DNA of 43,993 nt, from contig JANQIV010000145.1 in the NCBI GenBank assembly GCA_028282005.1, positions 1 through 43,993 on the forward strand, in the 5' to 3' direction. A program made the position numbers and the translations under genes. This DNA comes from Melioribacteraceae bacterium (lineage in GTDB: Bacteria > Bacteroidota > Ignavibacteria > Ignavibacteriales > Melioribacteraceae). The notes under the pieces are model-generated. The model was not told the origin of the DNA. It worked only from the letters and a program-made list of their open reading frames with translations, and ran no database searches. Shown here in pieces: positions 8,862 through 20,947 of this stretch. Position 1 is the stretch's first letter. Each line of letters begins with the position of its first letter.

Positions 8862-9536
8862 ATGGAAAAATATTCAATTATAATCCCTGTATTAAATGAA
8901 GAGGAAAATCTTCCAAAACTCTTTAAACACCTTAAGAACTTCAAAGAGAATTTTGAGATAATACTAGTTGATGGTGGCAGTAATGATAATTCTATTGAAA
9001 TTATTAAAGGTCAGGATGTAAAATACTTTAAAAGCGAAAAAGGAAGAGGACGCCAGTTAAATTTGGGCGCAGAAAATGCCTCCGGAGAAATTTTAATTTT
9101 TCTTCATGCTGATACGTTTCTTCCTTCTAACACATTTACCTTATTAAGTAATGAATTTAATTCCAGTGATGCACAAGTAGCTACATTTTCTTTGAAGTTC
9201 GATGTGGACTGCAAGATATTAAAGTTTTATGAAAAGTTTTCCCGGGTTGATTCTATTTTTACTTGTTTTGGAGATCAGGTAATAATTGTTCAAAAAGAAT
9301 TTTTTAACAAAATTGGAAAATTTCCAAACTATAGTATAATGGAAGATGTTGATTTTTTAAGAAGGGCACGCAGAAGTACAAAAATTAAAAAACTCAATGC
9401 ATCTGTAATCACTTCTAGCAGAAGATTTTTAAAGAAGGGGAAGATTAAGACACAACTCTTAAATGGTTGGTATATTTTGCAATATCTTATTGGGGTTGAT
9501 CCTGATAGAATTTATACCAAATATTTTAGTAATTAA
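8862..9536 (+). CDS. TIGR04283-type (arsenosugar-associated) family 2 glycosyltransferase
   Basis: The 224-residue GT-A protein starts YSIIIPVLNEEENL and has VDGGSNDNS (36-44), the diagnostic GRGRQLNLGA (61-70), LHADT with the metal motif H82-A-D84, then FGDQVIIV and the late MEDVDFLRRARR. GRGRQ plus FLHADT plus GDQ plus MEDVDF is the signature of the family called rSAM/selenodomain-associated transferase 2 or TIGR04283 arsenosugar biosynthesis glycosyltransferase. Its usual partners (TIGR04282, an AhpD-like protein and ArsS) are 8-11 kb downstream on the same strand, beyond the TolC/binding-protein/kinase operon. The pathway role comes from family knowledge and context; the sugar donor is unknown. 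Confidence 0.88.
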   Translation: MEKYSIIIPVLNEEENLPKLFKHLKNFKENFEIILVDGGSNDNSIEIIKGQDVKYFKSEKGRGRQLNLGAENASGEILIFLHADTFLPSNTFTLLSNEFNSSDAQVATFSLKFDVDCKILKFYEKFSRVDSIFTCFGDQVIIVQKEFFNKIGKFPNYSIMEDVDFLRRARRSTKIKKLNASVITSSRRFLKKGKIKTQLLNGWYILQYLIGVDPDRIYTKYFSN

Positions 9537-9741
9537 AGTAAAATCCTAATTTTATTTTTAATGGAATGAATGACCAGTCGTCGTACAATTAGCCAGCCTC
9601 ATCTCATTAATTGCAATAATAAATGACTTTTTAGCTAAATTTTGTTTAAAATGAACAATTATGTAACAAAATAATGTCAAAAGCATAATTATACTATTAA
9701 AATATTGCTTCCTTCCGAAAAAAAAGAAAGAGGAAAATAAT
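9537..9741 (+). promoter_or_regulatory. Presumed promoter region of the TolC / binding protein / kinase operon
   Basis: This 205-base AT-rich gap precedes the seven-gene operon. No clean sigma-70 pair is seen. It holds ATGACTTTTT (9623-9632) and TTTTGTTTAA (9640-9649); both decamers recur, overlapping, before the AhpD-like/arsS genes at 19425-19440. A good ribosome binding site (AGAGGA) lies just before the ATG at 9742. The promoter call is inferred. Confidence 0.4.
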
Positions 9742-11142
9742 ATGTTCATCAAATTACGTTGGATGTTAATAACTTTATCTGTTTTTACATTAACATTTGG
9801 TAGAAGTTTAGATGGCAATTATGAAAACCTAACACTAGATGATTGCATAAAAATAGCCTTGGAAAATAATAAACGAATTTCAATTTCAAATTATGATATT
9901 GATATAGCTTCCGCACAATTAAGACAAGCTAGATCAGGGAATTGGCCTTCACTTAATCTAACTTCCTCAGCTACGATTCTTGATGAAGATCCTGTAAATA
10001 TTAATCCAGCGTTTAGGATGGAATTAAAAGATATCGAACTAGCTGGATTGAGTATTCCTTCGCTACCTGTAAATGTGCCTGAAGAAGTTATAACATTAAT
10101 GGATAATAAGAATATTATGACGGAAGTTGATTTAATGTTTCCAATTTTTACCGGTGGGAAAATATCTTCTTTAATTAATCAGGCTAAAAATAATTTGGAG
10201 ATGTTGAACAATAAAAAAGTAAAATCAGAACTCGAAGTTATTTATGATACAAAAAAAATGTATTACACTTACCAATTAACAAGAAATCTTTTTGAAATTG
10301 GCGAAGAAGCACTTGAAAGACTTAAAGTTACATTGGAATTAACAGAAAACCTCTATAAAAACGGAACTGGCCGTGTCACAAAAATTGATTTCCTCCAAAA
10401 TAGTGTAGTTGTTGAAAGTGTTAAGGGGATTGTATCAAGGTTGGAAGAAAATCATTTAATTTCAAAAGAAGCTTTAAAATTTATTATTGGACTAAACTGG
10501 AATGATTCTATTTCAATCTCAAACGAAGAAATTCCATCTATGTCTATTTCGCAAACTGTAAACGACTTGGTTTTGACTGCAAGAGATAACAATCCAGTAA
10601 TAAAACAAATTAATCAAGCATTGAAAATCTTCGAATCAAAAATAGATGAAGCCCAAAGTGATTATTACCCAAACATAGCACTTATAGGCAAATACACAAA
10701 TATTGTAAATTCTTATGACTACGGTATTGTTTCGGATGCTATGAAAAACAGGTTTATGATTGGCCTAGGTTTGAATATGAGTCTCTTTAATGGTTTTAGA
10801 ACAGCTAATAAAGTAGATGAAGCTGAAGCTGGATTAAAGCAATTGAATTCAAAGAAAATACTCCTGGAGAACGGAATTTCACTAAATATACATCAGCTTT
10901 ACTATAAAAATAAAGGAGCTGAAGAACGACACGGTTGGGCAACCAATGCAATGGAACTTGCAATTGAAAATAGAGACTTGGCTGAAAGAGCATATAAAAA
11001 TGATTTAGTTGAAATTGAAGAGTTCATAACTGCCCAGGTCATGGAGTCAATTATGAAAGCACAATACCAATTAGCATTATTTGAAAAAGCCAACTTAGAT
11101 GCTCAATTAGAAAAAACTTTAGGGAAAAATCTAGTTAACTAA
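9742..11142 (+). CDS. TolC-family outer membrane efflux protein
   Basis: The 466-residue product has a signal peptide (about 1-20) and the two-fold repeat of outer membrane efflux proteins. The first repeat starts LTLDDCIKIALENNKRI; the second starts near NDLVLTARDNNPVIKQI. Each has long Gln/Asn/Ala-rich helices, typical of the TolC tunnel, and the second contains LGLNMSLFNGFR. TolC proteins are trimeric exit channels that normally work with an inner-membrane pump and a membrane-fusion protein, neither of which is encoded nearby. Only 3 bases separate it from the first PhnD-type gene, so it is the first gene of that operon. Placement between arsenosugar genes suggests export of an arsenical or a signalling role, but this is inference. 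Confidence 0.93.
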   Translation: MFIKLRWMLITLSVFTLTFGRSLDGNYENLTLDDCIKIALENNKRISISNYDIDIASAQLRQARSGNWPSLNLTSSATILDEDPVNINPAFRMELKDIELAGLSIPSLPVNVPEEVITLMDNKNIMTEVDLMFPIFTGGKISSLINQAKNNLEMLNNKKVKSELEVIYDTKKMYYTYQLTRNLFEIGEEALERLKVTLELTENLYKNGTGRVTKIDFLQNSVVVESVKGIVSRLEENHLISKEALKFIIGLNWNDSISISNEEIPSMSISQTVNDLVLTARDNNPVIKQINQALKIFESKIDEAQSDYYPNIALIGKYTNIVNSYDYGIVSDAMKNRFMIGLGLNMSLFNGFRTANKVDEAEAGLKQLNSKKILLENGISLNIHQLYYKNKGAEERHGWATNAMELAIENRDLAERAYKNDLVEIEEFITAQVMESIMKAQYQLALFEKANLDAQLEKTLGKNLVN

Positions 11143-11145
11143 AAT

Positions 11146-12066
11146 ATGAAAGTAGCTTATACTAAAATACAAATCCCAATTAAACGGTATCTAGTAATAT
11201 TCATTTGTTTTTTTCTTGGATTTTTTAATTGCTATTATTCTCAGGAAAACATAAAAAAGTTTTATGAAATAGGTTTATCAAAAAAAGCATTTTTGGATTT
11301 TACTGCTCAGGATGCAAAAGCGGCTGCAAAAGTGCTAGCTCAAAAAATATTTGAAAAAATGGACCTGAATTATTCTCCGAAAGTTAGAGTTTTTGATGAT
11401 TTATCTTCAATTGAAAAAATTATTAAAAACGATGTGCTGCATGTTGTTATTTTAACTACACCTGATTATATCAAATTAAGAGAAAGTGTAAAAGTAATAC
11501 CATTTAGTATTCCTGTATTGTTTGATAAAACTTTTGCCAGGTATTCTCTTATTGTAAATAAAAATAGCGGGATATCAAATGTTTCTCAATTGAAAGACAA
11601 AAAAATAATTGTGCTTGCTAATGCTGATGATGAAAATATTTTTCCGATCCTGTGGATTAATCAAGTATTAAACAAAAAATTTAAACAAAAGAGTAATAAG
11701 TTTTTTTCAGAGATCAAGATAACATCAGTTGCAACGGATGTTATTCTCCCGGTATTTTTCGAAAAATATGATGCATGCATTTTGACAGAAGACTACTTCA
11801 AAATTCAGGCCGAATTGAATCCTCAAATTAATAGCAAATTAACTGTAATGGATAATTCTGATGGGTATGTTATTGCATTGTTTTGTTTTACAAGCAAAGG
11901 AGAAAAAGAAAAAAATCAAGAAATCTTAAAAGCTTTTTATGATATGCACAAAACAACAAACGGAAAACAATTGTTATCGGTTTTTAAAACTGATCAATTA
12001 ATTCCTTATAAAGAAGAATACATTGAAAGCGTTGAAAAACTTTTAAACGATAGTTTGAAAGAATAA
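11146..12066 (+). CDS. PhnD-family periplasmic binding protein, copy 1 of 5
   Basis: The 306-residue protein has an N-terminal signal anchor or peptide (about 12-32) and the PhnD/phosphate-phosphonate type periplasmic binding fold: DAKAAAKVLAQKI near 56-68, GISNVSQLKDKKIIV (142-156), then LPVFFEKYDACILTE and the C-terminal signature MHKTTNGKQLLSVFK (267-281). The conserved stretch ELNPQI occurs in all five copies. Cysteines C211 and C247 belong to the pair shared by copies 1-4. No permease or ATPase is nearby, so it is more likely a ligand-sensing partner of the histidine kinase than a transporter subunit. Copy 2 is its closest relative by eye. The ligand is unknown; arsenite, arsenate or phosphate are candidates from context. 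Confidence 0.88.
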   Translation: MKVAYTKIQIPIKRYLVIFICFFLGFFNCYYSQENIKKFYEIGLSKKAFLDFTAQDAKAAAKVLAQKIFEKMDLNYSPKVRVFDDLSSIEKIIKNDVLHVVILTTPDYIKLRESVKVIPFSIPVLFDKTFARYSLIVNKNSGISNVSQLKDKKIIVLANADDENIFPILWINQVLNKKFKQKSNKFFSEIKITSVATDVILPVFFEKYDACILTEDYFKIQAELNPQINSKLTVMDNSDGYVIALFCFTSKGEKEKNQEILKAFYDMHKTTNGKQLLSVFKTDQLIPYKEEYIESVEKLLNDSLKE

Positions 12067-12111
12067 TAGCGAATTAAAAAAAATTATAAGAATTTCGATT
12101 TTATTTCGAAT

Positions 12112-13065
12112 ATGAATACAAGTAAAACAAATAGAGGAACCAGTAATTATTTGCAAAGATATTGGAAATGGATTTTAGGAATTATCCTTTTGTCGTTTTC
12201 TTTTAATTTGGCTCAGGAGAAAAGCAATCAAAAAGAATCATACGAAATAGGTTTTTCAAAAAAAGCATTTCTCAATTTTTCCATTCAAGATGGAAAAGCT
12301 GCGGCAAAAGTTCTTGCTCAAAAAATTTTCGAAAACCAAGCCCCAAATTATGAAGCTAATATTACTGTGTTTGAAAATCTGCAATTATTGAAATCGTTAG
12401 TTAGTAATGATAAACTGCATTTGGTGACACTTACATCCCCTGATTATTATGTGGTTAAAGACCAATTAGAGTTAACCCCTTTTTGCGTGCCCGTTTTCTT
12501 TGGAGACCAATTCAGCAAACTGATTCTAGTCGTAAAAAAAGGAAACGGAATTAATAATCTAAAATCATTGAAAAACAAAAAAATAATAGTTTTTGCGAAC
12601 ACAGATATTGATAATAGTTTCGCATTAATGTGGATTGATAATATTCTGATGAAAGAATTTAATGAAACTAGCAAAACATACTTTTCAGAAATTAAGTTAT
12701 CTTCAAAAACCTCAGAGGTTGTGTTACCGGTTTTTTTTGACAAATATGATGCATGTATCATTACAGAAGGATTATTTGATGTACAATCAGAATTAAATCC
12801 ACAAATAAAAACGAAGCTTGATTTAATAAGGGAGTCAGACAAATTTATAATTGCCTTAGTTTGTTTTACTAAAAAGGGTAATAAAATTGCCAATGATGAA
12901 GTAGTAGATGCGTTTCTAAATTTACATAAAACTCAACAAGGAAAGCAGTTGCTATCTGTATTTAGGGCAGACAAAATAATTCCTTATAAAGAGGAATATT
13001 TGATGTCTGTTGAAAAAATAATTGATGAAAATAAAAAGCTGAAAAAACAATTGAATAGCAGATAA
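12112..13065 (+). CDS. PhnD-family periplasmic binding protein, copy 2 of 5
   Basis: The 317-residue protein pairs with copy 1: YEIGFSKKAFLNF against YEIGLSKKAFLDF, a shared KAAAKVLAQKIFE, and QQGKQLLSVFRADKIIPYKEEY near the C-terminus. The signal or membrane segment is about residues 20-35, preceded by a basic N-terminus. The conserved cysteines are C215 (KYDACII) and C251 (ALVCFTK), with an extra C125 not shared with the others. It is separated from copy 1 by 45 bases, the largest gap within the operon, and from copy 3 by 13. A recent tandem duplication of copy 1 is likely. Same presumed role: periplasmic ligand sensing for the downstream kinase. Confidence 0.88.
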   Translation: MNTSKTNRGTSNYLQRYWKWILGIILLSFSFNLAQEKSNQKESYEIGFSKKAFLNFSIQDGKAAAKVLAQKIFENQAPNYEANITVFENLQLLKSLVSNDKLHLVTLTSPDYYVVKDQLELTPFCVPVFFGDQFSKLILVVKKGNGINNLKSLKNKKIIVFANTDIDNSFALMWIDNILMKEFNETSKTYFSEIKLSSKTSEVVLPVFFDKYDACIITEGLFDVQSELNPQIKTKLDLIRESDKFIIALVCFTKKGNKIANDEVVDAFLNLHKTQQGKQLLSVFRADKIIPYKEEYLMSVEKIIDENKKLKKQLNSR

Positions 13066-13078
13066 TAACAGAAACAAT

Positions 13079-13975
13079 ATGAAAATTTCAAAGCTACTAT
13101 TTTTTTTGTATCTAATTCTTTTTACAGAGGTTTTTTTAACGTCAACAATCAATTCTTTTCAGATAACCGAAAAAAAAATATTTCAATATGCTGTTTCTGA
13201 CCAAGTCTTGTTTGGAATTAATATTAATGATGCCAAACTCGCATTAGGTACATTACTTAAAAAATATGTTGAACATGAAAGTATTGAATATGAGGTTAAA
13301 GTCAAATTGTATGATGATCTTGATAAATTAGCAGAAGATTACCAGAAGTATAAATTTGATATTGTATCAGTGTTGGCAACTGAATATTTCTATTTAAAAC
13401 AAAAAATAAATATAGAACCCTTTTTAGCAACTGTTCGTAGTGAAACATCTTCTTCAAGGTTTTTGCTAATTACAAACGATAATGATCAGCTTAATAATAT
13501 TGATACTTTTCAAGGAAAAGATATAGAATTTTACTCTAATCAAAAATTAGATTATAGTGTTACATATAAATTATTAGAGGAGTTTACACAAGAGAAATTT
13601 GAAAAACCTGCTGATGAAATTTTTAGTAGAATGGTTCCTTTCAATAATCCGCATAATTCTTTGCTTAAAGTTTTCTTTGATGAGGTTGACTTTTGTTTAA
13701 TTGAAGATTCTCAGTATGAATTAATTACAGAATTAAATCCACAGCTAAAAAGTGAATTAAAAATAGTTTATTCAACAGATAAAATAATTCCTGCGATTGC
13801 TTGTAAAACTGAGTTTACTCAAGATGAGAAATTCTTTAGTGATAAAGCAACGAATATGCATAAAACAATTTATGGTAAACAGTTGATGGGTATTTATAAA
13901 GTAAATAAAGTATATTCAATAACCGAAAAAGATATTGAGTCAGTAAAGAGATTATTTACAAAAAGCGATAAATAA
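13079..13975 (+). CDS. PhnD-family periplasmic binding protein, copy 3 of 5
   Basis: The 298-residue protein has a signal segment at about 5-26 and belongs to the second subgroup with copy 4: FQYAVSDQVLFGININDAK here against FRFAISDQVLFEINVNDAK there. The conserved cysteines are C206 (EVDFCLIED) and C242 (AIACKTEF), again exactly 36 apart. ELNPQLK and MHKTIYGKQLMGIYK are present. Copy 3 lies 13 bases after copy 2 and 9 bases before copy 4, so translation is probably coupled. The N-lobe and C-lobe boundaries match the other copies, so it should be a complete two-lobe binding protein. The ligand is not identifiable from sequence. Confidence 0.87.
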   Translation: MKISKLLFFLYLILFTEVFLTSTINSFQITEKKIFQYAVSDQVLFGININDAKLALGTLLKKYVEHESIEYEVKVKLYDDLDKLAEDYQKYKFDIVSVLATEYFYLKQKINIEPFLATVRSETSSSRFLLITNDNDQLNNIDTFQGKDIEFYSNQKLDYSVTYKLLEEFTQEKFEKPADEIFSRMVPFNNPHNSLLKVFFDEVDFCLIEDSQYELITELNPQLKSELKIVYSTDKIIPAIACKTEFTQDEKFFSDKATNMHKTIYGKQLMGIYKVNKVYSITEKDIESVKRLFTKSDK

Positions 13976-13984
13976 ATTGTAACT

Positions 13985-14881
13985 ATGAATTTCAGAATTC
14001 TATTTTATACATTAATTATGTTTACATCAATTTGTGCCCAAATTGAAAAAGATAGTAAAAAAACTTTTCGTTTTGCTATTTCTGACCAAGTCTTATTTGA
14101 AATAAATGTCAATGATGCAAAAATGGCTCTCACATTCTTAGTGGATAAATATGTTGAAAGCGAAGAAATTGATTATAATTCGGAAATGAATATGTTTTCC
14201 GACCTAGACAAGTTAATCCTGAATCATTCTGAAAAACCATTTGAAATAATATTTCTTCTCTCAAGCCAATATCTTTATTTGAGAAATAAAATAGAACTGA
14301 CACCCTTTGTAGCAAGTTCAAGACGAGATAATCCCTTCACGAGCTATGTTATTGTTGTAAAAAAAGATTCCGGAGTAAATAATCTAAAGGATTTATTATC
14401 AAAAAAAGTTGATTACTATTCTAATCCAAAACTTGAATTCAGTATAACTTTAAAATTGTTAAAAAGATTATGTGATATTGAATTTAATAAACCTCCTGAT
14501 AAAGCATTTACCACAATTGAACCTAGGGAAAATGCCCAAACAGCTTTGCTGAATGTTTTTTTTGAAAAAATTGATGTGTGCTTAATAGAAAAGTACCATT
14601 ATGAAATAATTAGCGAACTAAATCCTCAGATAAAAAAACAAACAAAAGTATTGTATGAAAGTGAAGAGTTTATTACTGGGTTAGCATGTTTCACTCCTTA
14701 TTCAAGGGAAAAAGAACTTTTTTTGGAAAAAACAGTAACGATGCATGAAACTGTTTATGGAAAGCAATTTATGGATGTATTTAAGATTGGCCGCGTTTTT
14801 AGAATAACAAAAGAAGATTTAAAGACTCTTGAAGTTTTGTTTGAAGACTCTAAACTAATTAGTAATAAATTGGCAAAATGA
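13985..14881 (+). CDS. PhnD-family periplasmic binding protein, copy 4 of 5
   Basis: The 298-residue protein has a short signal peptide (about 1-18, ending SICAQ). It is closest to copy 3 (AISDQVLFEINVNDAK, NYYSN-type loop near 144, ELNPQIK, MHETVYGKQFMDVFK). The conserved cysteines are C199 (KIDVCLIEK) and C235 (GLACFTP), 36 apart; C17 and C163 are additional. Its stop overlaps the start of copy 5 by ATGA. The two subgroups (1/2 and 3/4) plus a divergent fifth copy suggest stepwise duplication, with possible diversification of ligand or affinity. Confidence 0.87.
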   Translation: MNFRILFYTLIMFTSICAQIEKDSKKTFRFAISDQVLFEINVNDAKMALTFLVDKYVESEEIDYNSEMNMFSDLDKLILNHSEKPFEIIFLLSSQYLYLRNKIELTPFVASSRRDNPFTSYVIVVKKDSGVNNLKDLLSKKVDYYSNPKLEFSITLKLLKRLCDIEFNKPPDKAFTTIEPRENAQTALLNVFFEKIDVCLIEKYHYEIISELNPQIKKQTKVLYESEEFITGLACFTPYSREKELFLEKTVTMHETVYGKQFMDVFKIGRVFRITKEDLKTLEVLFEDSKLISNKLAK

Positions 14882-15801
14882 AAACAAGATATTTAAAGAT
14901 TATATTGATGTTAATATTCCTTATTGGATTTAACTACTCTTTCGGTCAAGAAAACTTCAGCGAAAAAGATACTCTGAGAATAGGCATACCAATAAACTAC
15001 TTGGACTCATCTATTAAACCACGTGATGCAAAGGCAGCTTTTACAATGTGGACGAATTACTACTCACAAAGTTTGAAAGAAAAAATTGGTCTAGAATTGG
15101 AAATGAAATTCTATTTATATGAAAATATAAATGACCTGAAAAGAGACGTGATTGATGAATTTTTAGATTTAGTTAGCATAGCTACTTACGAGTACCTTAC
15201 ATTCGATGGATTGGAGAATTATGAAATTAAACTTAGTGGATTAAAAGGAACAGGAAAGAATTCAAATTACTTAGTTATTTGTAATATTGATTCAGAGTTT
15301 AGGCAAATGAAAGATTTAGATGAGATGAATTTTTACTCTAATGTTAGAGATAAAAACAACTTGATGAATCTTTGGTTAAAGAAAATTTTATTTGAAGAAG
15401 GAGTAAAAGATAGTAGAAAGTTTATGGATAATATGAAATTGGAGCTTGAACAAAATCAAATCATTTATTCTGTTTTTTTTGATAAGAAGGTGGCAGGGCT
15501 TGTAAGAAAAGATGTACTTGAATTGGTATCCACTTTGAATCCACAAATCAAAAATAAAATAAAAATTTTACACCAATCAAAAGATTATGTTGAAAATGTA
15601 ACAGTTTTAAAAAAGGCATTGTCAGATAGACTAAAAAGAATAATAATCGAGAATTCAACAAGATTCCATGAAACTGTGAAGGAAGAACAGCTCTTAAGTT
15701 TCTTTAAAGTAAATAGGTTAGTTGAATTAGAAGAATCGGATTTGAAGAACTCAAAAGAACTATTAGAAGAAATATATGAAATCCAAAAATTGCAAAAATA
15801 A
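14878..15801 (+). CDS. PhnD-family periplasmic binding protein, divergent copy 5 of 5, lacking the cysteine pair
   Basis: The 307-residue protein has a signal peptide (about 1-23, ending SFGQ) and the same fold landmarks (PRDAKAAFTMW, STLNPQIKNKI, FHETVKEEQLLSFFK), but it is clearly the most diverged. The first conserved cysteine is replaced by Gly (KKVAGLV, G207) and the second region (ENVTVLKK) has none; the only mature cysteine is C135 in another place. It starts in a 4-base overlap with copy 4 and ends 3 bases before the kinase ATG, so it is the copy most tightly coupled to the kinase. It might be a structural adaptor between the kinase and the other copies, or bind a different ligand; both are inference. 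Confidence 0.85.
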   Translation: MKTRYLKIILMLIFLIGFNYSFGQENFSEKDTLRIGIPINYLDSSIKPRDAKAAFTMWTNYYSQSLKEKIGLELEMKFYLYENINDLKRDVIDEFLDLVSIATYEYLTFDGLENYEIKLSGLKGTGKNSNYLVICNIDSEFRQMKDLDEMNFYSNVRDKNNLMNLWLKKILFEEGVKDSRKFMDNMKLELEQNQIIYSVFFDKKVAGLVRKDVLELVSTLNPQIKNKIKILHQSKDYVENVTVLKKALSDRLKRIIIENSTRFHETVKEEQLLSFFKVNRLVELEESDLKNSKELLEEIYEIQKLQK

Positions 15802-15804
15802 TTG

Positions 15805-17871
15805 ATGATAGGTTTTAAGATAAAATATCCAAATCCCAACAAATTTTTCAGTGGAGTTGCCTTTAAATTTGCAATCGTTACCTGGATATTAATCATTATA
15901 ACTTTGATATTCTTTATCGCAATAAGTTTGCCATACAGAAGAGCAGTTTTTTATGAAAGAATGGAGCAGGAAGCAAATAATATTTCTTCTTCAATTGTAA
16001 ATGCAAATCAGTCTGCATTAATAACCGAAGAATATGCTTCAATAGTTGAGCAATGCATTCAGTTAGTTCAAGGGAGTAATTCAATAAAGTTTCTTGTAAT
16101 TAAAAAAAATAATGGACTTGGACTTGTATTTACAAACGAAGGCTGGAAGATTGATACAGTTTATACAGATTGGCAAATTAAAGGTGATGAAAATTTCGAA
16201 GTTATCCAAAGCGATATTGTAAATGAAGAAATCTTTCAATATGCATATCATTTTACTTATTCAGGTATAGATTGGGGTTGGATATTTGTCGGACTTTCAT
16301 TAGAAGATTATTATAAAGCAATTTTTGATCAGACTTTTCGGACAATAATTATCGCTGTTATTTTAATTGTATTTAGTTTTGTAATTTCAATCTTCTTTAC
16401 AAGAAAAATTACTAACCCGATAAGAGTTTTGGACGATATAACTAGACAAATTGCAAATGGGAATTTAAATACTAAAGCTGAAATTTATACAAATGACGAA
16501 ATGCAAAATTTAGCCGAGTCATTTAACTTTATGACCAGATCTCTAAAAAGTGCTAGAGATAATCTTGAAACAAGAGTTGAAGAAAGAACTGCACAATTAG
16601 CAGAAAGTAATAAAGCTTTAAAGCGCGAAATAACAGAAAGATTAAAAGCTGAAGATTCCTTAAATAAGTATAACTTTAGACTCGAAGCCCTACAAGAAAT
16701 ATATCGCGGTATTATAAAAGCGATTTCAGTAAAAGAAATAATACAACAAACACTTCTGAACCTTCAAGAAAATTTTATAACCTTTAAAAGAGCAAGTGTT
16801 ATGCTCTATGAAACAAACAATGGGAATGTAAATATTTATGCAGTTACAAAAGACGATAATGACAATCTTAAACAGGTTAATGAATTCTTTAAAGTAGATG
16901 CATTTTCTCCAATTACTATTTTTGATGACAAAGGTTATAAAATCGTTAATGATTTGAATGAAATTGCTAAGAAAACCAAATTAGAAGAAAAGATTTATAA
17001 AGAAGGAATTAGATCATACGTAACATTTCAACTCGGATTTCAGGATAAAGTAATTGGCGAATTGAGCATCGGGACAGATAAAACAAAAGAGTATTCAGAA
17101 GATGTAATTAACACAATTTTAGAAATTAACAATACATTGGCCTTAGCAATAGCTCAAGCTGATTTACAAGAAAACATTAAGAGAAATGCTGAAAATCTTC
17201 AAAAATCTCTCGAAGAAAAAATGGTTTTATTGAAAGAAGTTCACCATAGGGTAAAAAATAACTTACAAGTTATTTCATCTTTGCTTTATTTACAGTCTGA
17301 AAAAAGCAGAGATGAGAAAGTCCTTAAGACATTGATGGATAGTCAAAGTAGAGTGAAATCAATGGCGCTAGTTCATGAAAAAATTTACAAGTCCAGCGAT
17401 TTCTCAAAAATAAATGTTTCCGACTACACAAAAAGTTTAGCTGAAATAATAATAAAATCTTTCAATGAAACTTCTAAGCGCATACATCTTTCGTTCGATA
17501 TTCAAGATATATTTTTACCAATAGATGTTTCGATTCCTTTTGGATTAATTGTTAACGAAGTTCTTACTAACATTATGAAACATGCTTTCACAGAACAGAA
17601 TGATGGCAATATAGAAATAGGTATTTCAGAGAGTAGCGATAATACGGTTACTCTTTCAATAAAAGATGATGGAAAAGGATTACCTGATGATTTTCTTGAA
17701 AAGTCGAAAGCTTCTTTAGGTATGCAGCTAATTCACAATTTAACCTTACAGATAAATGGTAAACTATCTTATGAAGAAAATAGCGGTACGCTATTTAAAG
17801 TTATTTTTGCAAAACCTGGGACTTATGATGTGGATAAAATTTCTTATGTAACGAGTAACAACCATTCTTGA
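15805..17871 (+). CDS. Membrane sensor histidine kinase (HAMP-GAF-HisKA_2-HATPase)
   Basis: The 688-residue kinase has transmembrane helices at about 21-43 and 178-198 flanking an extracytoplasmic domain of some 130 residues. HAMP follows (about 197-250), then a coiled coil, a GAF-like domain (about 308-452), a HisKA_2 dimerisation domain with the phosphoacceptor motif [11 protein letters not shown] (H480/H481), and a HATPase with N-box NEVLTN (N584) and DDGKGLPDD. The ATG at 15805 is preferred over an adjacent TTG at 15802. It closes the operon, 3 bases after copy 5. No response regulator is encoded in the operon or next to it, so its output partner is elsewhere. HisKA_2 kinases often signal to unusual receivers. 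The extracytoplasmic domain is the natural contact for the periplasmic proteins. Confidence 0.93.
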
Positions 17872-17949
17872 ATGTGAATAAAAAATGTAAAGATTCTTAC
17901 AGTTCCATTCACTAATAATTAATATATTTCAGAAACTATTAAATAATTG

Positions 17950-18627
17950 ATGGCCAATAAAAAAGCTATAATTGTATTTGCTAAATATCCTGAGATGGCA
18001 AAAGTAAAAACAAGGCTTGCAAGATCCACAGGTGATGAGTTCGCTTTTCAATTTTATAAACTTTGTTGCTCGTACATTTTTAGTGAGATTAATAAAATTG
18101 TTTCCGAGGATTTACAATGTTATTTATTTTATTCAGGCTCAAAACACTTGAAAAAAATTAAAGAGTGGGTAGGGTATGATTTTGAATATGAGTTGCAATT
18201 TGGCAATGACCTTGGCGTTAAGATGCACAATGCATTTGATTATGTGTTTTCAAAAGGTATTGAAAGATGTGTAATAATAGGGACAGACATCCCGGATATA
18301 AACAATAGTATTCTACAAGAAGCTTTTGAACATCTTAAAGAAAATGATTACGTTATCTCCCCTTCTGCTGATGGCGGTTATAATTACCTTGGCATGAAAA
18401 GATTGAACCAACAATTATTTGAAAATGTTAAGTGGAGTACTAACGAAGTATTTCCTAAAACGATTAAGCGAATAAAGAAAACAACTGATAAATTTATAAT
18501 AGCTGATGAGTTAATTGATATAGATACTGAAGAAGAATTACAAGATTGGATTGATGCTTATGATGGAAATACGGAACTAAAATCGAAAGTAAAAAAACTA
18601 TTGTTGCAGAATAGGAACGTCGGGTGA
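17950..18627 (+). CDS. TIGR04282-type (DUF2064) arsenosugar-associated transferase
   Basis: The 225-residue protein has a nucleotide-diphospho-sugar transferase-like fold: AIIVFAKYPEMAKVKTRLA at the N-terminus, IIGTDIPDINN in the middle, SPSADGGYNYLGMK and WSTNEVF toward the end. This combination marks DUF2064/TIGR04282, named for its association with arsenosugar biosynthesis and ArsS-type radical SAM proteins. The ATG at 17950 is preferred over a TTG three bases upstream. It lies 78 bases after the kinase stop and overlaps the DUF547 gene by GTGA, so the two are co-translated. The donor and acceptor are unproven; a role in attaching or preparing the sugar part is inferred from the family. 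Confidence 0.9.
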   Translation: MANKKAIIVFAKYPEMAKVKTRLARSTGDEFAFQFYKLCCSYIFSEINKIVSEDLQCYLFYSGSKHLKKIKEWVGYDFEYELQFGNDLGVKMHNAFDYVFSKGIERCVIIGTDIPDINNSILQEAFEHLKENDYVISPSADGGYNYLGMKRLNQQLFENVKWSTNEVFPKTIKRIKKTTDKFIIADELIDIDTEEELQDWIDAYDGNTELKSKVKKLLLQNRNVG

Positions 18628-19403
18628 AAAAGCTTTCTTTTTTCTTAATAATAATTTTTCAAACACAATTTGTTTATTCTCAGGATCAGCATGTAATATT
18701 CACTGAGGTATTAAAAGACTATATTATTGATGGTTTTGTAAATTATGCTGATTTAAAAAACGACAATAGATTAGATACTTATTTAAATCAACTCGCGAAT
18801 ACTGATACAAATGACTTTCAAAATGAAAATGATGAATTAGCATTTTGGATAAATGCGTATAATGCATTTACATTACAAGTTATTGTTGAAAATTACCCTT
18901 TAGAAAGTATTAATGATTTACACTTTGGCGGATTAATTATAGGATCAATTTTGAGTAAAACAATTTGGGATGATGATAGATTCGTTATCAAAGATAAAAA
19001 GTATTCACTTAACAATATTGAGCATGATATAATCCGTGAAAAGTTTAATGAACCAAGAATTCATTTTGCTGTTGTGTGTGCGTCTATAAGTTGTCCTTTA
19101 CTATTAAACGAAGCTTATGAAGGACATAAATTAATCGAACAATTAGAGAAACAAACAATCGCATTTTTTAATGATGAGTCCAGAAATAAATTTAACTTAA
19201 AAAATAGAGTTGCAGAAATATCTAAAATAATGGATTGGTATGATGATGATTTTGGCGACAATGATTCTGAAGTATTAAAATATATTTCAAAATTTTTAGA
19301 AGATAAAATCTCTAAAGATGTATTGACAAATATTAATGAATGGAAAATTGATTATTTACCTTATGATTGGGGATTAAACGAGGTGAGTAAAAAAAGTAAT
19401 TAA
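18624..19403 (+). CDS. Secreted DUF547 domain protein
   Basis: The 259-residue protein has a signal peptide (about 1-19, ending VYSQ) and a DUF547 domain with FWINAYNAFTLQ (74-85) and a later VCASISCPLL containing two cysteines. DUF547 is widespread with no established activity; a papain/transglutaminase-like relationship has been suggested. The GTG start overlaps the stop of the TIGR04282 gene, the strongest evidence that it works with it. DUF547 genes recur near arsenosugar-type genes, which supports but does not prove a pathway role. It is followed by a 113-base gap that may hold a new promoter. Confidence 0.85.
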   Translation: MKKLSFFLIIIFQTQFVYSQDQHVIFTEVLKDYIIDGFVNYADLKNDNRLDTYLNQLANTDTNDFQNENDELAFWINAYNAFTLQVIVENYPLESINDLHFGGLIIGSILSKTIWDDDRFVIKDKKYSLNNIEHDIIREKFNEPRIHFAVVCASISCPLLLNEAYEGHKLIEQLEKQTIAFFNDESRNKFNLKNRVAEISKIMDWYDDDFGDNDSEVLKYISKFLEDKISKDVLTNINEWKIDYLPYDWGLNEVSKKSN

Positions 19404-19424
19404 ATTTGTTATTATAATTTTGTG

Positions 19425-19466
19425 ATGACTTTTTGTTTAACAATGCTTATTCTTTATAAGGCTTTT
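19425..19466 (+). promoter_or_regulatory. Candidate promoter/operator before the AhpD-like gene and arsS
   Basis: The gap after the DUF547 gene contains ATGACTTTTTGTTTAA (19425-19440), whose two overlapping decamers also occur before the TolC operon. TTGTTT followed after about 16 bases by TATAAG gives a weak sigma-70-like pair. It is unproven, because AT-rich DNA yields such matches by chance. Confidence 0.3.
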
Positions 19467-19516
19467 CAAAAAAAATCAAAACTATAAATCAAAAATAATC
19501 CTTGGATGGAGTACAA

Positions 19517-19849
19517 ATGGAAACATATTACAATCCTGCAGATTTAGCTAAGTTTGGTGAAATTGGCGAAGGTGCACCAGAGCTTTGGAAAAAATTTAGT
19601 GAATGGTATGGGGAGGTATTTAAAGAAGGTGCATTGAGTGAAAGAGAAAAATCTTTAATCGCTTTAGCTGTGGCGCATGCAATTCAGTGTCCGTATTGCA
19701 TTGATGCTTACTCACAAGATAGTCTTGCTAAAGGTGCCGACCTTGAACAAATGACAGAAGCAGTGCATGTTGCCAGTGCAATTCGTGGTGGTGCTTCACT
19801 TGTCCACGGTGTTCAAATGAAAAATATAAATGAAAAAATGACAATGTAA
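19517..19849 (+). CDS. AhpD-like CPYC protein, arsenosugar-associated peroxidase-like family
   Basis: The 110-residue carboxymuconolactone decarboxylase/AhpD-fold protein has the redox motif CPYC (C58, C61) inside AHAIQCPYCIDAY, followed by H84 in EAVHVASAIRGG. The length and the ELWKKFSEWYGEVF start fit the family annotated as arsenosugar biosynthesis-associated peroxidase-like protein. The ATG at 19517 is chosen because GGAG lies about 5 bases upstream; an earlier TTG at 19502 has no such site. It is 16 bases before arsS and surely co-transcribed with it. A thiol redox role in the pathway, perhaps supplying electrons or protecting an intermediate, is inference. Confidence 0.88.
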   Translation: METYYNPADLAKFGEIGEGAPELWKKFSEWYGEVFKEGALSEREKSLIALAVAHAIQCPYCIDAYSQDSLAKGADLEQMTEAVHVASAIRGGASLVHGVQMKNINEKMTM

Positions 19850-19865
19850 TTGAGAGGAAATTACT

Positions 19866-20912
19866 GTGGAAGCAAGACACAAATCAATGAAAGCTTTTGG
19901 CGAATCGCTTGCCGATGTAAATGAACAATTGAAAATTATTAATCAGCCGGGTGATTTTCCTTTCTTTGATGAAAAATATAAAGAAACTGGCGAAGAAGAA
20001 TTGAAAGCCGGAAAAATTGAAATCTTTCAAATGAATCTCGGCAAGATGTGCAACCAAGTCTGTAAACATTGTCATGTTGATGCTGGCCCGGACAGAAAAG
20101 AAATTATGACAAAAGAAACAATGCAGCTTTGTCTAGAAGTTCTTTCAAAGACAGATATCCCAACAGTGGATCTAACCGGTGGTGCTCCTGAGATGAATCC
20201 AAACTTTAAGTGGTTTGTTGATGAAGTAAGAAAATTAAATAAACATGTTATGGTGAGATCAAATTTAACAATACTTGTCACCAACGGATTTGAAGATTAT
20301 GCAGATTTTATGGCTAACCACGAAGTAGAGATTGTTTCGTCTCTTCCCTATTATAGAGCATCTTACACCGATAAACAAAGGGGGGAAGGCGTATTTGAAA
20401 AATCAATTTCTGCAATTAAAAAGTTAAATGAACTTGGTTATGCAAAAGAAGGATCCGGCTTAACGTTTAATTTGGTTTATAATCCAGTTGGTGCTTTTCT
20501 TCCGCCTTCGCAAACAGGTTTGGAAAAAGATTACAAACGTGAGCTAAAAAATAAATTTGATGTTGAGTTTAACAGTCTCTTTACAATTACTAACATGCCT
20601 ATAAGTCGTTACTTAGATTACTTGATTGCTTCTGGTAATTATGAAAGTTACATGAACAAACTTGTAAACTCCTTCAACCCAGCTGCTGCGCTAAACGTAA
20701 TGTGCAAAAATACTTTATCAATAGGGTGGGATGGATATTTATACGATTGTGATTTTAACCAAATGCTCGAAATGCGTGTTAACCACGGGGCGCCAAAACA
20801 CATAAGAGATTTTGAAATAAGTATGCTTGAAGGCAGAAAAATAGTAACTGGGCAGCATTGCTATGGCTGTACAGCAGGCGCAGGTTCAAGCTGCGGAGGT
20901 GCTACTGCTTAA
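19866..20912 (+). CDS. arsS: Arsenosugar biosynthesis radical SAM protein ArsS
   Basis: The 348-residue radical SAM enzyme has the cluster motif C62-x3-C66-x2-C69 (CNQVCKHC), GGAPEMNP as the usual GGE-like strand, and a C-terminal DUF3641-type domain with C280, C295, C332, C335 and C343; the tail CYGCTAGAGSSCGG is typical of ArsS. ArsS is thought to transfer the 5'-deoxyadenosyl group to dimethylarsinous acid made by ArsM, the first committed arsenosugar step. The GTG start at 19866 is supported by GAGAGGA 7 bases upstream. Some family members carry selenocysteine in the C-terminal part; here the codons are ordinary Cys. No arsM gene is present in the window. A strong hairpin follows. Confidence 0.93.
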   Translation: MEARHKSMKAFGESLADVNEQLKIINQPGDFPFFDEKYKETGEEELKAGKIEIFQMNLGKMCNQVCKHCHVDAGPDRKEIMTKETMQLCLEVLSKTDIPTVDLTGGAPEMNPNFKWFVDEVRKLNKHVMVRSNLTILVTNGFEDYADFMANHEVEIVSSLPYYRASYTDKQRGEGVFEKSISAIKKLNELGYAKEGSGLTFNLVYNPVGAFLPPSQTGLEKDYKRELKNKFDVEFNSLFTITNMPISRYLDYLIASGNYESYMNKLVNSFNPAAALNVMCKNTLSIGWDGYLYDCDFNQMLEMRVNHGAPKHIRDFEISMLEGRKIVTGQHCYGCTAGAGSSCGGATA

Positions 20913-20916
20913 TATT

Positions 20917-20947
20917 TAGGATTCCATTTTTTTAAGATGGAATCCTA
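20917..20947. terminator. Hairpin terminator between arsS and the convergent MarR-GNAT gene
   Basis: An 11-bp perfect stem (TAGGATTCCAT at 20917-20927 with 20937-20947) encloses a T-rich 9-base loop directly after the arsS stop. The stop codon of the convergent gene lies in the right arm, so the structure may serve both strands. The T tract after the stem is short. Confidence 0.7.

What the first reader, a model, noticed from the sequence alone, without database searches (positions are those of the whole stretch)
8862..20912. Arsenosugar gene set wrapped around a TolC / five-receptor / histidine kinase operon
Seen: TIGR04283-type transferase, then TolC, five PhnD-type proteins and a kinase in one tight operon, then TIGR04282-type transferase, DUF547, AhpD-like and ArsS, all on one strand. 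Known: TIGR04282, TIGR04283, the AhpD-like family and ArsS define arsenosugar biosynthesis loci; AioX, which senses arsenite with the kinase AioS, is a PhnD-family protein. Inference: the inner operon is a dedicated multi-receptor arsenic or phosphate/arsenate sensing and possibly export module for arsenosugar synthesis. I know of no described system with this composition.
Basis: partly seen in the sequence, partly recalled or inferred. Interest (0 to 1): 0.87.

Follow-up and report, generated by a model that had tools for sequence, protein, structure and literature searches.

The report
TolC, receptor and kinase sensing module
What looked like an arsenic-sensing unit inside an arsenosugar gene set is a self-contained gene kit (an outer-membrane channel, several receptor proteins and a signalling kinase) that recurs side by side in at least six other bacterial phyla without those genes beside it, and it likely senses something other than arsenic.

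Summary
In detail: coordinates hold, and TIGR04283, TIGR04282, TIGR04169 and ArsS pass their cut-offs around a TolC / five PhnD-type receptors / HisKA_2 kinase operon.

The arsenosugar reading of the inner operon mostly fails. In 164 genomes of the order, ArsS is in 28, the module in 11, both in 2 (1.9 expected). The other ten module genomes show no arsenosugar gene beside it, nor do 30 named loci from other lineages. The five receptors keep 0 of 7 AioX pocket residues; AioX/ArrX-like receptors of the same order keep 6.

What is there seems more interesting: a TolC / 1-6 receptors / Cache-kinase module, complete in 17 of 21 named loci with both flanks visible, in at least six other phyla. Its TolCs group together, and TolC and kinase-sensor distances run together (r 0.88). 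It likely works as a receptor-fed envelope sensor. In the window it sits between two transferase genes that are fused or adjacent in relatives.

Against: a second genome probably has a module receptor and TIGR04282 on one 36.5-kb contig, so a sister lineage may share the linkage. Ligands, TolC's role and the response regulator are unknown.

The parts
8862..9536 (+). TIGR04283 arsenosugar-type glycosyltransferase; in 8 relatives the N-terminal half of one fused protein
   Evidence: 239.7 bits over cut-off 182; fusions
9537..9741 (+). 205-bp gap before TolC, likely start of the inner operon's transcription; left edge of the module
   Evidence: no shared 10-mer between the two edges; promoter-like sites are near shuffle level
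9742..11142 (+). TolC-family outer-membrane channel of a type tied to this module
   Evidence: Pfam OEP; module TolCs of the named loci 338-554 bits against 26-125 for other TolCs of the own genome; one group 100/99 in a tree with long outgroup branches
11146..12066 (+). receptor 1, PhnD-fold binding protein of the FF/ELNPQ type
   Evidence: PF12974; 0 of 7 AioX pocket residues
12112..13065 (+). receptor 2 (49% identical to receptor 1), modelled at pLDDT 91
   Evidence: model; fold match ArrX TM 0.81 by target length
13079..13975 (+). receptor 3
   Evidence: pairs with receptor 4 in tree
13985..14881 (+). receptor 4
14878..15801 (+). receptor 5, next to the kinase; groups with the last receptors of G031 and G114
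   Evidence: tree (support 92/93)
15802..17871 (+). histidine kinase: TM, periplasmic single-Cache-like sensor, TM, HAMP, HisKA_2 (H-box at 481), HATPase_c; the relatives G056 and G031 also show GAF
   Evidence: sensor shared with module kinases of other phyla
17872..17949 (+). 78-bp gap to TIGR04282, right edge of the module; in 7 of 9 visible modules of the order (window counted) a response regulator gene stands at this place, but not here
   Evidence: relatives
17950..18627 (+). TIGR04282 arsenosugar-type transferase (listed from a TTG at 17947; ATG at 17950)
   Evidence: 191.9 bits over cut-off 134; start
18624..19403 (+). DUF547 protein, frequent member of this arsenosugar gene set in relatives
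19502..19849 (+). TIGR04169 AhpD-like protein
   Evidence: 192.4 bits over cut-off 120
19866..20912 (+). ArsS radical SAM protein (TIGR04167)
   Evidence: 456.4 bits over cut-off 300
20917..20947 (+). terminator-like hairpin after ArsS (14 pairs)
   Evidence: the scan as a whole is at shuffle level (6 found, 5.4 expected)

Best explanation
The inner operon is a TolC / receptor / Cache-kinase module that recurs as a unit in at least six other phyla, and it likely works as an envelope sensor in which periplasmic receptors would bind ligands and press on the kinase's sensor domain; its place inside the arsenosugar genes is likely a rearrangement of this lineage and not its purpose. Shown: gene content, the shared TolC type and sensor domain, the missing oxyanion pocket, chance-level joint occurrence with ArsS, and the arsenosugar order without the module in relatives. 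Inferred: receptors are exported (hydrophobic N-termini), each takes a ligand other than phosphate, phosphonate or arsenic oxyanion, and a loaded receptor docks on the single Cache domain. The kinase would phosphorylate itself at its H-box histidine (about residue 481) and pass phosphate to a response regulator. The regulator is the next gene in most near kin but absent here, so the partner would be encoded elsewhere. The matched TolC would be the outer-membrane passage for the ligand or for what the system responds with; the window's operon has no pump or adaptor gene. In other phyla some neighbouring outputs are c-di-GMP enzymes, which suggests control of surface behaviour.
For: Order survey: receptors of this type in 11 of 164 genomes (12 hits at E 1e-20 less G006, whose receptor is AioX/ArrX-like). 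TolC beside them in 11 of 11 and the kinase in 10 of 10 where the contig reaches. Regulator next to the kinase in 7 of 9 visible, not in the window or G498. Named loci: 17 of 21 with both flanks visible are TolC-receptors-kinase; TolC in 20 of 26 visible, kinase in 19 of 25 visible. Sensor scores 192-335 bits. 18 module TolCs group apart from 5 other own TolCs (100/99); TolC and sensor distances correlate, r 0.88, 0 of 5000 permutations, and 0.94 without the five nearest kin. Pocket: 0 of 7 in all five window receptors against 6 of 7 in five AioX/ArrX-like receptors of the same order; the site is strongly constrained in the controls (1 of 10,000 random column sets as low) but not in module receptors. 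Site: G503 has AmyA-GT-fusion-DUF547-TIGR04169-ArsS with ArsS 81% identical and no module. G031, G114, G420 and G499 hold the module in the interval between glutamine synthetase and a macro gene; the own genome has another, weakly kinase-like gene there. Outputs: four of the ten neighbour proteins tested are RR-GGDEF proteins.
Against: No ligand, docking or phosphotransfer was tested. Vertical descent alone could give part of the TolC/sensor distance correlation. Four of 21 named loci with both flanks visible lack the triad: L094 has the kinase but no TolC, and L101, L110 and L113 have lone receptors. The receptors' nearest solved relative is still ArrX. The pocket's higher variability in module receptors is not significant (647 of 10,000 random sets as high). 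P0006 and P0060 probably share a 36,534-bp contig, so the arsenosugar linkage may not be unique to this genome. TolC may serve another pump of the cell.
Confidence: 0.66

Rival explanations
1. Dedicated arsenic sensing: the receptors would bind arsenite, arsenate or an organoarsenical and switch on arsenosugar synthesis.
For: Position inside the gene set; ArrX is the nearest solved relative; an ArsM over its cut-off elsewhere in the genome; probable second genome with a receptor and TIGR04282 on one contig.
Against: 0 of 7 pocket residues in all five receptors; joint occurrence with ArsS 2 of 164, 1.9 expected; none of 28 other ArsS loci read carries the module; none of 30 named module loci carries arsenosugar genes; an arsenic-type X-kinase-regulator set in the same phylum is of another type (L081).
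Confidence: 0.07
2. Regulatory capture: the module moved between TIGR04283 and TIGR04282 and its promoter now likely drives the downstream arsenosugar genes, so that arsenosugar synthesis in this lineage answers to the module's own, non-arsenic, signal.
For: 78-bp gap between kinase and TIGR04282 and no terminator-like site in it; 205-bp gap before TolC; linkage probably kept in a sister genome whose TIGR04282 is 59% identical.
Against: No transcript data; promoter and terminator scans are near shuffle level; the sister linkage rests on equal contig length and sources only, and none of the 8 proteins is listed with that contig.
Confidence: 0.2
3. Receptor-fed export: TolC is the business end. 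The receptors would collect compounds in the periplasm for export through TolC by a pump encoded elsewhere, and the kinase would report the load.
For: TolC is in 20 of 26 named loci with visible upstream flank and has a history matched to the kinase sensor; a PhnD-fold sterol-transport protein is a fold match (7t1m).
Against: No pump or adaptor gene lies in the window's operon. At the other loci most neighbours were not annotated: only ten named-locus neighbour proteins went through Pfam, and none was a pump or adaptor.
Confidence: 0.15
4. Assembly artefact: the contig wrongly joins the module to the arsenosugar genes.
For: The window is one contig of a 271-contig genome; the linkage was seen in no other held genome examined.
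Against: Two false joins would be needed, at clean gene borders on both sides; genes on both sides match one uninterrupted locus of G503; P0006 and P0060 suggest the same linkage elsewhere.
Confidence: 0.04

Closest known systems
AioX-AioS-AioR and ArrX/ArxX arsenic sensing sets (PMC5908839, passages read)
   Same: PhnD-fold periplasmic receptor encoded beside a sensor kinase; ArrX is the nearest solved structure
   Different: Five receptors, an added TolC, no regulator gene here, none of the seven AioX pocket residues, no arsenic redox enzyme beside it
TtrS/ThsS kinases with PhnD-like sensor domains (PMC5408782, passages read)
   Same: PhnD-like fold used for signalling to a histidine kinase
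   Different: There the receptor is part of the kinase; here receptors are separate, several, and come with TolC and a Cache-type sensor domain
SBP-stimulated sensor kinases such as BctC-BctE (PMC9602780, passages read)
   Same: Free binding protein that would dock on the kinase's periplasmic domain
   Different: BctC belongs to an uptake transporter; the window's operon has no inner-membrane transporter, but an outer-membrane TolC channel and a receptor array
Arsenosugar gene set TIGR04282, TIGR04283, TIGR04169, ArsS (NCBIfam names)
   Same: All four members pass cut-offs in the window; DUF547 often belongs to it in relatives
   Different: Interrupted by the module between the two transferases

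Membership tests
AioX/ArrX/ArxX arsenic receptors | pocket residues Tyr88, Cys106, Tyr131, Ser161, Ser163, His192, Asp210 (PMC5908839) | tested here: not met
   0 of 7 in all five receptors; 6 of 7 in G331 X and in five receptors of the same order
AioX/ArrX/ArxX arsenic receptors | PhnD-type class II binding-protein fold | tested here: met
   model of receptor 2, pLDDT 91; ArrX TM 0.81 by target length
XSR arsenic sensing operon | X, S and R genes together beside an arsenic molybdoenzyme | tested here: not met
   no regulator after the kinase and no molybdoenzyme in 8862-20912; contrast L081
XSR arsenic sensing operon | arsenite or arsenate binding | not testable with these tools
   needs purified receptors
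PhnD/PtxB phosphonate or phosphite uptake receptors | equivalog score and an oxyanion (Ser-x-Ser) site | tested here: not met
   31.5 bits against PhnD cut-off 261 for receptor 1; Ser161/Ser163 positions not kept in any of the five
Arsenosugar biosynthesis gene set | TIGR04282, TIGR04283, TIGR04169 and ArsS over cut-off together | tested here: met
Arsenosugar biosynthesis gene set | ArsM present in the genome | tested here: met
   G000:C181, 304.5 bits over cut-off 263 (which marks one TAA in the match); the frame there is open for 286 aa up to the match's end
Tripartite efflux system | TolC-type channel with two OEP repeats | tested here: met
Tripartite efflux system | adaptor and inner-membrane pump in the same operon | tested here: not met
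   none between 8862 and 20912
SBP-stimulated two-component system | kinase with periplasmic sensor domain next to receptor genes | tested here: met
SBP-stimulated two-component system | receptor binds the sensor domain and changes kinase activity | not testable with these tools
   needs binding and phosphorylation assays

The most novel reading that the evidence does not exclude
A trans-envelope sensor: a dedicated TolC channel, an array of interchangeable periplasmic receptors and a Cache kinase act as one apparatus, with TolC itself part of signal reception. It would be spread over many phyla as a unit and swap its cytoplasmic output (c-di-GMP enzymes, hybrid kinases, stand-alone receivers). 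In this lineage it has in addition taken over half of an arsenosugar operon.
Probability: 0.25. Interest if true: 0.85.

Novelty: new variant of a known kind. Interest (0 to 1): 0.62.

Why it matters
Characterised binding proteins that talk to kinases often belong to uptake transporters, as BctC does (PMC9602780, passages). Here a family of receptors without the oxyanion pocket goes with its own TolC type and its own Cache kinase in at least six other phyla, in arrays of one to six. If TolC takes part in sensing, it gives an outer-membrane channel a role that none of my literature searches showed for a two-component system. It also warns against assigning arsenic function from neighbourhood alone.

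Tried and rejected
Arsenic or phosphate sensing by pocket residues: rejected. Splitting of a fused transferase gene by the insertion: not settled; fused and separate TIGR04282 genes are mixed in the tree (at least three changes) and G500 has two overlapping separate frames, so I claim only that the module sits at that junction. Recent foreign origin from base composition: module genes have 26-31% GC like neighbouring TIGR04283, TIGR04282 and DUF547, so no signal; no direct or inverted 10-mer at the edges. A response regulator elsewhere in the genome: 136 matches to the hybrid regulator-kinase of G031, none stood out as the partner. Plasmid-borne copies: no match for P0010 in the plasmid collection. 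Rfam: no RNA family in the window. The genome of P0006 is not among the 391 genomes drawn from the class (best identity 37%), nor evident in the order.

Rows dropped before counts: G006 was left out of the 12 order hits because its receptor is AioX/ArrX-like. The receptor tree used 14 named loci. Receptor frames under 150 bits were left out. Searches were scripts that failed and were rerun. In the phylum survey (24 of 395 genomes at E 1e-6) I count only G000, G031, G114 and G420 (E 1e-48 or better) as module type; of the weaker ones G331, G046, G016 and G001 are AioX/ArrX-like and the rest were not all checked.
Full report
OBSERVATION. The four arsenosugar families pass their curated cut-offs, and DUF547 is a frequent member of the set in relatives. 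Between TIGR04283 and TIGR04282 lie TolC, five PF12974 receptors and a kinase with HAMP, HisKA_2 and HATPase_c, with spacings of -4 to 45 bp inside and 205 and 78 bp at the edges. No call names the organism; kin proteins are labelled Ignavibacteria, Ignavibacteriaceae and Melioribacteraceae.

THE MODULE WITHOUT ARSENOSUGARS, NEAR KIN. A profile of ten receptors was run over 164 genomes of the order at E 1e-20. Twelve had matches; G006 is left out because its receptor is AioX/ArrX-like, so 11 remain. In all 11 a TolC of the same type lies next to the receptors, and in all 10 where the contig reaches, the kinase with the same sensor follows. None of the ten besides the window has an arsenosugar-set protein in the stretch read, 5.9 to 19.9 kb. 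A response regulator follows the kinase in 7 of 9 visible cases: a REC-PAS-HisKA hybrid in G031, G056 and G114, a stand-alone receiver in G420, G494, G499 and G512. It is absent in the window and in G498. In G031, G114, G420 and G499 the module sits in the interval between enolase/glutamine synthetase and a macro-domain gene; G493 and G512 show one side of this slot (glutamine synthetase and macro named by Pfam, enolase by recall). In the window's own genome that slot holds another gene with weak kinase similarity, so the module's place differs between the window and these kin.

ARSENOSUGAR GENES WITHOUT THE MODULE. ArsS is in 28 of the same 164 genomes at E 1e-60. Both are in 2 (the window and G114), against 1.9 expected. 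In G114 they lie on different contigs. Stretches around 28 other ArsS genes were read (the 27 other order hits plus the short G019 contig); none holds module proteins, though the stretches run from 3 to 19.9 kb and several are cut short. Eight carry TIGR04283 and TIGR04282 as one fused gene and G500 has them as adjacent, overlapping frames; many of the rest show neither gene near ArsS. The closest by ArsS, G503 (81% identical), has the window's order AmyA, glycosyltransferase, fusion, DUF547, TIGR04169, ArsS without the module; the two window genes align to its two halves, residues 3-222 and 227-442. So the module sits exactly at that junction. Whether it split a fused gene is open, since fused and separate forms are mixed in the tree.

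THE MODULE IN OTHER PHYLA. One scan of named genomes with receptor alignment A5 gave 30 loci. With profiles made from near kin, 21 loci show both flanks and 17 of these are TolC, 1-6 receptors, kinase; TolC is in 20 of 26 with visible upstream flank and the kinase in 19 of 25 with visible downstream flank. Four of the 21 are not complete: L094 lacks TolC, and L101, L110 and L113 are lone receptors. By record title and taxonomy the complete ones include Thermodesulfobacteriota (with Geobacter), Acidobacteriota, Nitrospirota, Verrucomicrobiota, Synergistota and Sumerlaeota. Two further labels, Clostridia and Actinomycetota, are doubtful bins for a TolC gene (my judgement). None of the 30 has a match to the five arsenosugar-set proteins. 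Module TolCs of these loci score 338-554 bits to the near-kin profile, other TolCs of the own genome 26-125. In a tree of 18 module TolCs (5 near kin, 13 of the 17 named) and 5 other own TolCs the module ones form one group (100/99; the tool warns of long outgroup branches), and their distances follow those of the kinase sensor (r 0.88; 0.94 without the near kin; 0 of 5000 permutations each). Shared descent explains part of this, but the tree also puts Geobacter with Nitrospirota, which suggests transfer as a unit. In the own phylum the strong matches are few: 4 of 395 sampled genomes at E 1e-48 or better, among 24 at E 1e-6.

RECEPTORS. The model of receptor 2 (61 sequences, pLDDT 91) is a class II binding protein nearest to ArrX. 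Seven residues line the AioX pocket (PMC5908839, passages read). All five window receptors have 0 of 7; nine further near-kin receptors (one of them a lone receptor) have 0 or 1; five receptors elsewhere in the order and the X protein of G331 have 6; of 15 other PhnD-type controls 14 have 4-5 and one has 2. G331 is a positive control in the same phylum: ArsR, a methyltransferase, an SBF-family transporter, X, a kinase, a sigma-54 regulator and a molybdopterin oxidoreductase in a row (L081), with X matching ArrX at 5e-53. In the controls the pocket columns are strongly constrained (1 of 10,000 random sets as low). In 61 module-type receptors they are somewhat more variable than average (647 of 10,000 random sets as high, not significant), while FF, ELNPQ, an Asp near the first helix and a Trp are nearly fixed. 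I read this as different ligands with a shared docking or structural core; that is inference.

KINASE. The sensor (20 sequences, pLDDT 86) matches WalK and Cache chemoreceptor domains with modest scores; Pfam sees sCache_3_2 weakly in 9 of 20 (best E 0.0024). Its motif VFHY..PF.YSGI.WGWIHVGLSL is shared from near kin to other phyla, with changes in the window.

OUTPUT. Of ten neighbour proteins that I chose from the named loci and put through Pfam, four are RR-GGDEF proteins (L091, L098, L115, L099) and one a sigma-54 activator (L090); the other five are unrelated or unclear.

AGAINST. P0006 (a receptor) and P0060 (the closest TIGR04282, 59%) both list a longest contig of 36,534 and sources ncbi, lgn, ena. 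They probably share a contig, so a sister genome may have the same linkage. None of the 8 proteins (kinase sensor search) is listed with that contig length, and none of the 120 TIGR04282 relatives listed (of 410) with the 27,601-bp contig of the closest kinase P0052 (65%). Neither contig could be fetched. Linkage kept over 59% identity would make regulatory capture more likely.

LITERATURE. Searches: PhnD with TolC and histidine kinase (0 papers); related word sets (15 listed of 15, 10 of 34, 12 of 36, 4 of 4); PF12974 with histidine kinase (3 of 3). No title, abstract start or read passage describes this module. I saw the search listings, and passages of PMC5908839, PMC9602780 and PMC5408782; the library lacks most subscription journals.

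VERDICT. A recurrent, apparently undescribed TolC-receptor-Cache kinase module, likely an envelope sensor, that in this genome lies inside an arsenosugar gene set. Ligands, TolC's role and the response regulator are not known.

Noticed in passing
L061, L066, L067, L068, L144, L152, L160, L165: TIGR04283 and TIGR04282 transferases occur as one fused protein of 427-464 residues in eight relatives; fusion needs at least three changes on the TIGR04282 tree.
   Followed up: partly
L027:94-3998 (own genome, C247): A second, different TolC, PhnD-type protein (with an STSG motif) and kinase stand in a row in the same genome; their TolC and receptor are not of the module type (32 and 42 bits).
   Followed up: no
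L081:5878-18434 (G331): An ArrX/ArxX-type arsenic sensing set with ArsR, methyltransferase, SBF-family transporter, sigma-54 regulator and molybdopterin oxidoreductase in the same phylum.
   Followed up: partly
L001, L002, L003, L004, L017: Five receptors in the window's order keep 6 of 7 AioX pocket residues, so AioX/ArrX-like receptors exist in the order at other loci.
   Followed up: no
L142:10263-12284 (own genome, C98): The glutamine synthetase / macro-domain slot that holds the module in relatives carries a 673-residue gene with weak kinase similarity here.
   Followed up: no
L078:7175-8080 (G114): A lone receptor of the module type, without module TolC or kinase beside it.
   Followed up: no
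L098 and L111: A locus labelled Clostridia groups closely with one labelled Synergistaceae in the TolC and receptor trees, so that genome bin label is doubtful; the same may hold for L089 (Actinomycetota).
   Followed up: no
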